This document shows, one piece after another, positions 18,401 to 43,598 of a stretch of 43,598 nt of DNA. Position 1 is the stretch's first letter. Every line of letters begins with the position of its first letter. The stretch comes from Bacteroidetes bacterium HGW-Bacteroidetes-13 (lineage in GTDB: Bacteria > Bacteroidota > Bacteroidia > Flavobacteriales > Flavobacteriaceae), in NCBI GenBank assembly GCA_002841025.1, contig PHDQ01000003.1, positions 1 to 43,598 on the forward strand, in the 5' to 3' direction. Made by a program: the position numbers and the translations under genes. The notes below the pieces were generated by a model that searched no databases, was not told where the DNA came from, and worked only from the letters and a program-made list of their open reading frames with translations.

Positions 18401-18632
18401 ATAACTATTCAGTCCAATGAAAAATCGACACAAATATAGTCTGTTCGAGTATTTTATTGAAAAATGCGACCGCTTTTTTAATAAAACGTATCGAGAACGC
18501 TACAATTTCAAACTTCTCGATACCTGCCTGTGGCAGACAGGCAATTTTTAATAGTAAAGCTGTCGCATTACTATTAAAAACCACTCGAAGTGACGATTAA
18601 AACTAAATTCATTTGAATAGCTGAATAGTTAC
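18401..18632. mobile_element. Complete 232-bp MITE with 12-bp TIRs and 8-bp target duplication
   Basis: The ends are ATAACTATTCAG and CTGAATAGTTAC: 12-bp terminal inverted repeats with a single mismatch at the outermost base. The flanks carry AAAAAATG directly on both sides (18393-18400 and 18633-18640), an 8-bp target duplication. No ORF is inside. The interior is an imperfect palindrome with nested stems: GTATCGAGAA/TTCTCGATAC (18488-18497, 18514-18523), GCCTG/CAGGC, and a perfect 13-bp stem TTTTTAATAGTAA/TTACTATTAAAAA (18545-18557, 18568-18580). GTAA ends with an 8-bp duplication are the hallmarks of IS66-family elements, so an IS66 transposase is the likely mobiliser (inference). A second copy begins at 43437. 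Confidence 0.85.
18431..18438 (-). promoter_or_regulatory. Outward -7 box inside the MITE facing kbl
   Basis: The minus strand reads TATATTTG, an exact TAnnTTTG match, 60 nt before the kbl ATG. The -33 position carries TTTTTC, not TTTG, so strength is doubtful. The second MITE copy keeps a consensus box (TAAATTTG) at the same place despite an indel. Confidence 0.4.
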
Positions 18633-40756: not shown

Positions 40757-41998
40757 ATGACACCTTCAGGAAAAATAGAATTGATGGCTCCGGCAGGAAA
40801 TTTTGAATCCCTGCAAGCCGCTTTAGACAACGGTGCCGATTCAGTTTATTTTGGCGTCGAACAACTCAACATGCGGGCGCGTTCTACCATCAATTTCACC
40901 TTGAAGGATTTGCCGGAAATAGCCAAACGTTGCCAAGACAAAAACGTCCGAACCTATCTGACATTGAACACCATCATCTACGACCACGATCTGTCGGTAG
41001 TAAAAACCCTCTTGACCAAAGCCAAGGCAAACAACATCAGTGCAGTCATTGCTTCCGACCAAGCCGTTATTTCGACCGCCCGAAGCCTGGGGCTTGAAGT
41101 ACATATTTCTACACAACTGAATGTGACCAATATAGAAACCGTTAAGTTTTACAGCCTCTTTGCAGATACCATCGTTCTTTCTCGCGAATTAAGTTTGCGT
41201 CAGGTCAAAAATATTACCGAACAAATCGCCAAAGAACAAATCAAAGGTCCCAATGGAAATCTGATAGAAATAGAAATTTTTGGACACGGTGCCTTGTGTA
41301 TGGCCGTTTCCGGGAAATGTTATTTAAGCCTGCACTCGCATAATTCTTCTGCCAATAGAGGTGCGTGCAAACAAAATTGCCGGAAAAAATATACGGTCAT
41401 CGATCAAGAAAGTGGTTTTGAAATCGAAATTGACAACGAATACATGATGTCACCCAAAGATCTATGCACCATTGACTTTCTCGACCAAGTAATCGATTCA
41501 GGCATCAAAGTATTGAAACTTGAAGGTCGCGGTCGCGCACCGGAATACGTGGCAACCGTCACCAAAACCTATCGCAACGCAATAGAAGCCTACTACGAAG
41601 GTACTTATACCAAAGATAAAATCGGCGTATGGATGGATGATTTGTCCACCGTTTACAACCGGGGCTTTTGGGCCGGTTATTACCTCGGTCAAAAATTGGG
41701 TGAGTGGAGTGATAATCCGGGCTCAAATGCTACCCAAAAGAAAGTTTATATCGGTAAAGGCATGCACTATTTCCCTAAATCGGGCGTGGCAGAATTCAAA
41801 ATCGAAGCATACGATCTGACGAAAGGTGACAAAATTCTCATCACCGGCCCAAGCACGGGCGCACAAGAATTGGTTGTTGAAGACATGTTTGTCAACGACG
41901 TCGATGCCGAAAAAGCTTCAAAAGGAGATAGTTGTACTTTCAAAACACCCTTCCGAATTCGCCTTTCCGACAAACTTTATAAAATTGTAGCGGGTTAA
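40757..41998 (+). CDS. Peptidase U32 family protein, TrhP-like tRNA hydroxylation factor
   Basis: Despite the name, U32 proteins are mostly Fe-S-dependent RNA hydroxylation factors (TrhP for tRNA U34, RlhA for 23S rRNA) or ubiquinone-synthesis proteins. The 413-residue protein starts IELMAPAGNFESLQAALDNGADSVYFG, has STQLNVTN and four cysteines, ALCMAVSGKCYLS then RGACKQNCRKKY, that match the U32 cluster ligands, and ends with a small beta domain. Size and layout suit TrhP more than RlhA (about 650 residues). The downstream ferredoxin may have been its electron partner before a toxin-antitoxin cassette came between them (inference). Confidence 0.85.
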   Translation: MTPSGKIELMAPAGNFESLQAALDNGADSVYFGVEQLNMRARSTINFTLKDLPEIAKRCQDKNVRTYLTLNTIIYDHDLSVVKTLLTKAKANNISAVIASDQAVISTARSLGLEVHISTQLNVTNIETVKFYSLFADTIVLSRELSLRQVKNITEQIAKEQIKGPNGNLIEIEIFGHGALCMAVSGKCYLSLHSHNSSANRGACKQNCRKKYTVIDQESGFEIEIDNEYMMSPKDLCTIDFLDQVIDSGIKVLKLEGRGRAPEYVATVTKTYRNAIEAYYEGTYTKDKIGVWMDDLSTVYNRGFWAGYYLGQKLGEWSDNPGSNATQKKVYIGKGMHYFPKSGVAEFKIEAYDLTKGDKILITGPSTGAQELVVEDMFVNDVDAEKASKGDSCTFKTPFRIRLSDKLYKIVAG

Positions 41999-42003
41999 AA
42001 CAA

Positions 42004-42038
42004 TTTGTCTTTAAATATTTTGTACATATATTTGTACA
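42004..42038 (+). promoter_or_regulatory. phd-yoeB promoter with two TGTACA operator boxes
   Basis: TTTG (42004-42007), 19 nt, TATATTTG (42027-42034): a full Bacteroidetes promoter. Two TGTACA palindromes (42021-42026 and 42033-42038) sit 12 bp apart within a tandem TTTGTACATATA repeat and overlap the -7 box. TGTACA cores are the known operator half-sites of E. coli yefM-yoeB. It starts 5 nt after the U32 stop codon. Confidence 0.75.
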
Positions 42039-42064
42039 TATATTTTCATTAAAAATCATTTGCC

Positions 42065-42319
42065 ATGATAACAACAACTTTATCGGATTTCAGGAAAGAC
42101 ATCAAGACATATTTTAAAAAAATCACGGAAAATTTCGAAACATTAATTATAAACAGGGGGAAAGACAGTGGGGTGGTAATTATCTCTTTGGATGAATACA
42201 ATTCGCTAATGGCAACCCGGCATGAGCTTTCATCTGCCTCGAATGAAAAAAGATTGGATGCTGCCATTGAAAAATTGAAAAACAAACAAACATTTGAAAA
42301 AATACTTTTGGAAGAATGA
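42065..42319 (+). CDS. Phd/YefM-type antitoxin
   Basis: An 84-residue type II antitoxin. MITTTLSDFRKDIKTYFKKI is the Phd/YefM N-terminal DNA-binding fold, and LIINRGKDSGVVIISLDEYNSL the family core (split as ETLIINRGK and VVIISLDEYNSL). The charged C-terminal tail (EKLKNKQTFEKILLEE) should wrap the toxin. It overlaps the toxin start by 4 nt (ATGA), as is usual for these pairs. The two TGTACA boxes upstream suggest that it represses its own operon. Confidence 0.88.
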   Translation: MITTTLSDFRKDIKTYFKKITENFETLIINRGKDSGVVIISLDEYNSLMATRHELSSASNEKRLDAAIEKLKNKQTFEKILLEE

Positions 42320-42831
42320 AGTATATTTTTGTTGATGAATCTTGGGAAGACTATCTGTATTGGCAAAAAACGGATAAAAAAATGCTTCGTAAAATCAATG
42401 ATTTGTTACACGATATTTCCCGCACACCATTTTCCGAAATTGGCAAACCCGAACCTTTAAAATTCAAATACAGAGGTTTTTGGTCAAGAAGAATTGACAA
42501 TGAGCACCGGTTGATTTATCAAGTCCGGGAAGATGAAATATTGGTTGCTAAATGCAGATTTCATTACGATTTGATTTTTCTAAAATCCCTTTCACTTCAA
42601 ATGGTCATCATCACCCTTCAAAGAGAAAAATGCATCGGCTGCAACTACTGCGTCGAATTGGATTCGGCACATTTTCGCATGTCAAAAAAAGATGGAAAAT
42701 CGGTTCTTTTAAAGTCAATCAACAACAAAGGGTTTCACACGCTCAAATCGCCTGACCACAACATATTGGAAAAATCTGAATTAGCTGCCAAAGCTTGTCC
42801 GGTGAAAATTATCACTTTGAAAGAAATATAA
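42316..42831 (+). CDS. YoeB-type mRNA interferase fused in frame to a [4Fe-4S] ferredoxin
   Basis: One 171-codon frame with two parts. Residues 1-84 are a full YoeB/Txe toxin, a ribosome-dependent endoribonuclease: E46, R65, H83 and Y84 of E. coli YoeB are all present at the same numbers (KPEPLK, EHRLIY, RFHY), and E. coli YoeB is also 84 residues. Here no stop follows Tyr84. An 11-residue linker (DLIFLKSLSLQ) leads to Met96 and a complete ferredoxin with CIGCNYC (C106, C109, C112) and a fourth ligand in AKACPVK (C161). A toxin with a C-terminal extension may be damped, because YoeB uses its C-terminal Tyr. Ferredoxin can also start from its own ATG (42601). Confidence 0.85.
   Translation: MKYIFVDESWEDYLYWQKTDKKMLRKINDLLHDISRTPFSEIGKPEPLKFKYRGFWSRRIDNEHRLIYQVREDEILVAKCRFHYDLIFLKSLSLQMVIITLQREKCIGCNYCVELDSAHFRMSKKDGKSVLLKSINNKGFHTLKSPDHNILEKSELAAKACPVKIITLKEI
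42601..42831 (+). CDS. Small [4Fe-4S] ferredoxin (probable native start inside the fusion)
   Basis: From ATG 42601 the frame encodes 76 residues, MVIITLQREKCIGCNYCVEL to the end ACPVKIITLKEI, a single-cluster ferredoxin with CxxCxxC and a distant CP. I recall Flavobacteria that encode a near-identical ferredoxin directly after this U32 gene, which supports this ATG as the ancestral start. No promoter box was seen just upstream, so it probably relies on the toxin message, by read-through translation or re-initiation. No gene is listed twice here: this is the alternative product of the fused frame. Confidence 0.6.
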   Translation: MVIITLQREKCIGCNYCVELDSAHFRMSKKDGKSVLLKSINNKGFHTLKSPDHNILEKSELAAKACPVKIITLKEI

Positions 42832-43436: not shown

Positions 43437-43598
43437 GTAACTATTCAGTCTAATAGAAAATCGACACAAATTTATAGTCAGTTCGAGTGTTTTATTAAAA
43501 AATGCGACCGCTTTTTTTAATAAAACGTATCGAGAACTATACAATTTCAAGCTTCTCGATACCTGCCTGTGGCAGACAGGCAATTTTTAATAGTAAAG
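43437..43598. mobile_element. Second MITE copy, cut by the window edge
   Basis: Begins GTAACTATTCAG, the same terminal repeat as the right end of the copy at 18401-18632, and runs in the same orientation with high identity, including GTATCGAGAA/TTCTCGATAC (43527-43536, 43553-43562) and the GCCTG/CAGGC stem, until the window ends inside TTTTTAATAGTAA. Indels and substitutions show it is an older or separate insertion, not an assembly duplicate. Its right end and target duplication lie outside the window. Confidence 0.85.
43467..43474 (-). promoter_or_regulatory. Outward -7 box inside MITE copy 2 facing the eRF1-like gene
   Basis: The minus strand reads TAAATTTG, an exact TAnnTTTG match at the position equivalent to the box in copy 1, though the local sequence differs by an insertion. 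No consensus -33 was confirmed. Confidence 0.35.

What the first reader, a model, noticed from the sequence alone, without database searches (positions are those of the whole stretch)
42004..42038. Cassette promoter with paired TGTACA operators overlapping the -7 box
A complete TTTG-N19-TATATTTG promoter starts 5 nt after the U32 stop, and two TGTACA boxes 12 bp apart flank the -7 element. TGTACA is the operator core known for E. coli YefM-YoeB. The near-identical 12-bp tandem unit TTTGTACATATA puts both boxes on nearly the same DNA face. This supports an autoregulated, self-contained cassette that moved as a unit and placed a housekeeping ferredoxin under toxin-antitoxin control.
Basis: partly seen in the sequence, partly recalled or inferred. 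Interest (0 to 1): 0.5.

Follow-up and report, generated by a model that had tools for sequence, protein, structure and literature searches.

The report
Self-regulating toxin-antitoxin promoter, YefM-YoeB type
The two TGTACA boxes around the promoter are the standard self-repression switch of a common bacterial toxin-antitoxin pair, real and widely conserved; the unusual part is that the pair sits between two housekeeping genes and its toxin gene has run on into the ferredoxin gene behind it.

Summary
Confirmed, and mostly ordinary. Positions 42004-42038 hold TTTG-N19-TATATTTG with TGTACA boxes at 42021-42026 and 42033-42038, 12 bp apart, just upstream of a yefM-yoeB cassette: the published E. 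coli/axe-txe operator geometry. Of 127 distinct yefM upstream regions, 114 carry a GTAC pair at exactly 12 bp. In 63 of 75 close Bacteroidota-type loci with a pair, the -7 box TAnnTTTG lies exactly between the boxes (0.3% at shifted positions): promoter and operator are interlocked. Autoregulation is the best reading; binding and start site are untested.

"Moved as a unit" is supported: U32 and ferredoxin genes are directly adjacent in 70 sampled relatives (48 with stop-start overlap); three genomes carry the cassette between them. "Ferredoxin under TA control" is not shown: in the sister species promoter, operator and toxin have decayed while ferredoxin is intact.

The oddity is downstream: the toxin stop codon reads TTG (42571-42573), fusing YoeB in frame to ferredoxin, seen in no other sampled locus. 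Tolerated stop loss or decay is likelier than a new function, and it rests on one base of one draft assembly.

The parts
40757..41998 (+). U32-family gene (TrhP-like), upstream neighbour; ancestral partner of the ferredoxin gene
   Evidence: PF01136 E 1.4e-67; TrhP model below its cut-off; directly followed by ferredoxin in 70 sampled relatives
42004..42007 (+). TTTG, -33 element of the cassette promoter
   Evidence: sequence; TTG at N19-22 in 31 of 63 relatives
42027..42034 (+). TATATTTG, -7 element (TAnnTTTG)
   Evidence: sequence; perfect TAnnTTTG at the same place in 63 of 75 relatives with the pair
42021..42026 (.). operator box 1, TGTACA
   Evidence: 12-bp pair in 114 of 127 loci
42033..42038 (.). 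operator box 2, TGTACA, overlaps the last two bases of the -7 element
42039..42064 (+). predicted 5' leader of the yefM transcript (start near 42039)
   Evidence: inferred from -7 box at -12 to -5 in F. psychrophilum (PMC9723704); no RNA data
42065..42319 (+). yefM antitoxin gene
   Evidence: PF02604 E 2.5e-15; dN/dS about 0.06-0.07
42316..42567 (+). yoeB toxin part, residues 1-84, overlaps yefM by ATGA
   Evidence: PF06769 E 4.6e-37; E46 R59 E63 R65 H83 Y84 all present
42571..42573 (+). TTG where relatives have the toxin stop codon (lost stop)
   Evidence: sister TAG, L031 TAA at the same place
42601..42831 (+). 4Fe-4S ferredoxin, in frame with yoeB; former own start ATG 42601-42603
   Evidence: Fer4_15 E 1.3e-9; dN/dS 0.04-0.05

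Best explanation
The segment is the promoter-operator of a chromosomal type II yefM-yoeB cassette. RNA polymerase with the Bacteroidota primary sigma factor reads TTTG / TATATTTG and starts near 42039 (inferred). YefM, better together with YoeB as co-repressor, binds the two TGTACA boxes that stand either side of the -7 element and blocks initiation; loss of antitoxin relieves repression (inferred from the E. coli and axe-txe systems). The cassette was inserted at the stop-start junction of a U32-ferredoxin gene pair (shown by comparison). In this genome the toxin stop codon is lost, so the transcript encodes YefM and a YoeB-ferredoxin read-through protein; ferredoxin alone may still be made from its own ATG (inferred). 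The fusion is most likely tolerated stop loss in a cassette that is decaying in this genus.
For: Published geometry: TGTACA cores 12 bp centre to centre, overlapping the promoter, YefM repressor and YoeB co-repressor (PMC4803016, PMC7730913). Same geometry in 114 of 127 yefM upstream regions, shuffles 0.1 of 105. TAnnTTTG exactly between the boxes in 63 of 75, 0.3% at shifted positions; in three-box loci spacer 1 15/16, spacer 2 1/16. Exact pair unique in the genome. Families of both proteins. Empty U32-ferredoxin junction in 70 relatives. Lost stop by comparison with sister and L031.
Against: No binding, start-site or expression data. The sister species has lost the operator, so it is dispensable in this genus. 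The toxin here carries an extension found in no other sampled locus and changes at two nearly invariant sites (G41E, K32H), so the repressor complex may differ from the model.
Confidence: 0.85

Rival explanations
1. The operator is a relic: the toxin is already inactive (C-terminal extension beside the catalytic residues, G41E, K32H), the cassette is decaying and the boxes are conserved only because little time has passed.
For: Sister toxin is broken (stop at codon 71, H83Y) and its operator lost; the window toxin has a unique extension directly after catalytic His83-Tyr84.
Against: Both boxes, the -7 box and all six key toxin residues are intact in the window despite dS near 1 to the sister; YefM is under constraint (dN/dS 0.06).
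Confidence: 0.35
2. The fusion is an assembly or sequencing error and the toxin ends normally.
For: A single substitution in a fragmented draft assembly (358 contigs, 82% complete); no second genome has it.
Against: The frame stays open for the 30 nt up to the ferredoxin ATG, and the surrounding frames are clean. Reads could not be inspected.
Confidence: 0.2
3. The cassette promoter is the main promoter of the ferredoxin gene, so the ferredoxin is truly under toxin-antitoxin control.
For: Same strand, no terminator between cassette and ferredoxin, translational fusion in this genome.
Against: No terminator after U32 either; sister has no recognisable cassette promoter yet conserves ferredoxin; in relatives ferredoxin is in the U32 operon.
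Confidence: 0.2

Closest known systems
E. coli yefM-yoeB promoter-operator (L and S palindromes)
   Same: TGTACA cores, 12 bp centre to centre, overlapping the promoter, upstream of homologous yefM-yoeB genes (PMC4803016)
   Different: Bacteroidota -7 element TAnnTTTG sits exactly between the boxes instead of a sigma-70 -10 box under the L palindrome; no extended long palindrome was tested for
Enterococcus axe-txe promoter-operator
   Same: Same core and same 12-bp spacing (PMC7730913)
   Different: In axe-txe one repeat lies in the -10/-35 linker and the other partly overlaps the -10 box; here the two boxes bracket the -7 box
Bacteroidota primary-sigma promoters (TTTG / TAnnTTTG)
   Same: Perfect -7 element and a TTTG at N19
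   Different: Nothing unusual; the -33 element is weak across the relatives, as reported for F. johnsoniae (PMC7366714)

Membership tests
yefM-yoeB type II toxin-antitoxin system | YefM/Phd-family antitoxin | tested here: met
   PF02604 56.4 bits, cut-off 29.8; the narrower NCBIfam equivalog PRK11409 gives 45.8 bits, below its cut-off of 121
yefM-yoeB type II toxin-antitoxin system | Txe/YoeB-family toxin with catalytic residues | tested here: met
   TIGR02116 118 bits, cut-off 51.8; E46, R59, E63, R65, H83, Y84 present (roles from PMC3814384)
yefM-yoeB type II toxin-antitoxin system | Toxin ends at or just after Tyr84 | tested here: not met
   57 of 58 close relatives end within two residues of Tyr84; the window continues 87 residues into ferredoxin. 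This is a common trait of the family, not a formal criterion
yefM-yoeB type II toxin-antitoxin system | Antitoxin gene first, overlapping the toxin gene | tested here: met
   ATGA overlap at 42316-42319
yefM-yoeB promoter-operator | Two TGTACA cores 12 bp apart overlapping the promoter | tested here: met
   reference geometry
yefM-yoeB promoter-operator | Binding by YefM/YefM-YoeB and repression | not testable with these tools
   needs gel shift, footprint and reporter
Bacteroidota primary-sigma promoter | TAnnTTTG with TTTG about 19-21 nt upstream | tested here: met
   TTTG-N19-TATATTTG
Bacteroidota primary-sigma promoter | Transcript start about 5 nt after the -7 box | not testable with these tools
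   no RNA data for this organism

The most novel reading that the evidence does not exclude
The YoeB-ferredoxin fusion is real, expressed and selected: a ribosome-dependent RNase carrying a 4Fe-4S domain whose production is autoregulated by the interlocked operator, so that iron-sulphur or redox state could bear on toxin activity; and the U32-ferredoxin junction is a repeated landing site for such cassettes.
Probability: 0.07. Interest if true: 0.65.

Novelty: new member of a known kind. Interest (0 to 1): 0.33.

Why it matters
The operator itself is textbook, but the comparison shows that in Bacteroidota the conserved 12-bp yefM-yoeB operator spacing is filled by the -7 element itself (TGTACA-TAnnTT-TGTACA), so one 18-bp string predicts such loci and their likely start sites in genomes where promoters are hard to call. 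The locus also offers a toxin-antitoxin cassette that splits a tightly packed housekeeping gene pair, with one intact, one broken and one fused version to compare.

Tried and rejected
Hexamer enrichment in the window: none. Pair with up to 2 mismatches in the window: not above chance, so only the exact pair and the comparative test carry weight. A single vertical insertion for all three cassette-bearing genomes: rejected by the U32 tree (AU p 0.001), although the cassette genes themselves group together weakly (78/87). Import of the cassette with its flanks by homologous recombination: the U32 and ferredoxin DNA around the cassette in L031 is closer to its empty-site neighbours than to the window, so no trace of it. 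Remnants of the cassette in loci whose match seemed to run through toxin and ferredoxin (G1118, G1282, G1262, G1268): U32 and ferredoxin are directly adjacent there and no toxin is found. A ferredoxin partner of TrhP in PMC6599085: not mentioned, so the link between U32 protein and ferredoxin rests on adjacency alone. Kedzierska 2007 itself: not held, cited through later papers. The first dN/dS run for ferredoxin was off by one base and was redone. A mixed toxin/ferredoxin alignment aligned badly and was not folded; the one folded has no depth over the ferredoxin.

Full report
What is there. Five bases after the stop of a U32-family gene (40757-41998) come TTTG (42004-42007), a 19-nt spacer and TATATTTG (42027-42034); TGTACA lies at 42021-42026 and 42033-42038. 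The two 12-mers TTTGTACATATA at 42019-42030 and 42031-42042 are identical. Then follow yefM (42065-42319) and a 171-codon frame (42316-42831) that holds a complete YoeB toxin (PF06769, residues 5-84) and a 4Fe-4S ferredoxin (Fer4_15, residues 99-167).

Chance. The hexamer is not enriched (6 against 6.5 expected), and the promoter pattern alone is only moderately rare (5 against 1.5). The exact pair is found at one place in the 2.54-Mb genome, and the string TGTACATANNTTTGTAC occurs four times in 100 related genomes, three of them upstream of yefM-yoeB (the fourth is in a 0.3-Mb genome and was not followed). The strong test is comparative. I collected yefM-yoeB loci from the genome search at family, order, phylum and genus level and from genome contigs, took the bases before each yefM start and removed duplicates. 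Of 105 regions, 92 have two GTAC cores exactly 12 bp apart, against 0.1 on average in dinucleotide shuffles; with Flavobacterium loci added, 114 of 127. Cautions: starts were chosen by homology to this YefM, distant loci are less certain, and related loci are not independent.

Promoter and operator are interlocked. Among 80 loci with YoeB at least 65% identical, 75 have the pair and 63 of these have a perfect TAnnTTTG exactly between the boxes, that is TGTACA-TAnnTT-TGTACA with the last two letters of the -7 box inside box 2. At shifted positions the motif is found in 0.3% on average (highest 6.7%). Sixteen loci have a third box 12 bp further on: the first spacer is TAnnTTTG in 15, the second in one. 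So the spacer letters appear to be kept for the promoter and not for the repressor. TTG at N19-22 before the -7 box occurs in 31 of 63, most often at N20; this agrees with the report that no -33 motif was identified in F. johnsoniae (PMC7366714). With the -7 box at -12 to -5 (PMC9723704), transcription should start near 42039, leaving a 26-nt leader; the median distance from the -7 box to the ATG is 21 nt in relatives.

What is known. The E. coli yefM-yoeB and enterococcal axe-txe operators have TGTACA cores 12 bp apart centre to centre, overlapping the promoter; YefM is the repressor and YoeB the co-repressor; changing the spacing disturbs cooperative binding; and the spacing is said to be kept in many bacteria (PMC4803016, PMC7730913). 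The segment here is a member of that kind. What differs is the promoter type and the exact nesting of the -7 box; I found no report of that nesting in the papers searched, which is not proof that none exists.

The site. In 70 distinct sampled loci the U32 gene is followed directly by the ferredoxin gene, and in 48 of them the stop and start codons overlap (TAATG or TGATG). Only three genomes have the cassette in between: this one, a species of the same genus (G002 = L045, Flavobacteriales CG_4_9_14_3_um_filter_40_17), and a Flavobacteriaceae metagenome genome (L031, Jr-11may16-200) that falls inside Flavobacterium in the U32 tree. The U32 tree rejects one clade for the three (AU p 0.001), while the cassette genes group together with weak support (78/87), and the flanks of L031 resemble its empty-site neighbours. 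Either the cassette entered the same junction twice or it was transferred; this is left open. Other yefM-yoeB copies with the same promoter lie at unrelated sites, which supports movement as a unit with its promoter.

The toxin. L031 has a normal toxin ending HYD-stop and three operator boxes. The sister's toxin has a stop at codon 71 and Tyr for the catalytic His83, and its upstream region keeps neither the TGTACA pair nor TAnnTTTG. In the window all six key residues are intact (roles from PMC3814384), but the stop codon is TTG (42571-42573) where the sister has TAG and L031 has TAA, and the following bases lead in frame into the ferredoxin ATG, 30 nt on. No other sampled locus has a long extension. 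Sites 32 and 41, nearly invariant in relatives, are changed in the window. AlphaFold2 gives a confident toxin domain, a disordered linker (85-97) and an unreliable ferredoxin part for lack of aligned sequences.

Is the ferredoxin under toxin-antitoxin control? It lies on the same strand with no terminator in between, so transcripts from the cassette promoter could reach it. But no terminator was found after U32 either, and the sister keeps a conserved ferredoxin without the cassette promoter. The claim is possible and unproven. The U32 protein resembles TrhP (below the model's cut-off), and a TrhO-like gene lies next to it in L031 (by my reading of the sequence); a role of this ferredoxin in that pathway is an inference from adjacency.

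Verdict. The rare element is the toxin-ferredoxin read-through, resting on one base of one draft assembly and more likely a by-product of decay than a new function.

Noticed in passing
42571-42573, 42316-42831: Toxin stop codon lost (TTG), giving an in-frame YoeB-ferredoxin fusion found in no other sampled locus.
   Followed up: yes
L045 (same locus as L002), upstream of yefM and codons 71 and 83 of yoeB: Sister species has the same cassette at the same site with a broken toxin (R71 stop, H83Y) and a degraded promoter-operator, while yefM, U32 and ferredoxin stay intact.
   Followed up: yes
18524-18543 and 43563-43582: CTGCCTGTGGCAGACAGGCA, an inverted-repeat element present 34 times in this genome, several near contig ends; REP-like.
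   Followed up: partly
43489-43526: Two 18-nt arms, 94% complementary, 2 nt apart, next to the REP-like copy at 43563.
   Followed up: no
L071, L074, L076, L078, L080, L085, L092, L103 upstream of yefM: Non-Bacteroidota yefM-yoeB loci (mostly Gammaproteobacteria) have three GTAC cores spaced 12 and then 6 bp, unlike the 12/12 spacing of three-box Bacteroidota loci.
   Followed up: no
L012, L120, L124, L128, L172 upstream of yefM: A second Bacteroidota subgroup (antitoxin starting METVNYTDFR) has a GTAC pair at 12 bp but a TAnnTTTG-like box downstream of it, almost at the ATG, suggesting a very short or absent leader.
   Followed up: no
L194 (G001): A genome listed as the same genus has a much more divergent U32 (61%) and ferredoxin (51%) than other family members.
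   Followed up: no
L033: A contig labelled Thermodesulfobacteriales carries a Bacteroidota-type cassette with the interlocked operator: recent transfer or a misbinned contig.
   Followed up: no
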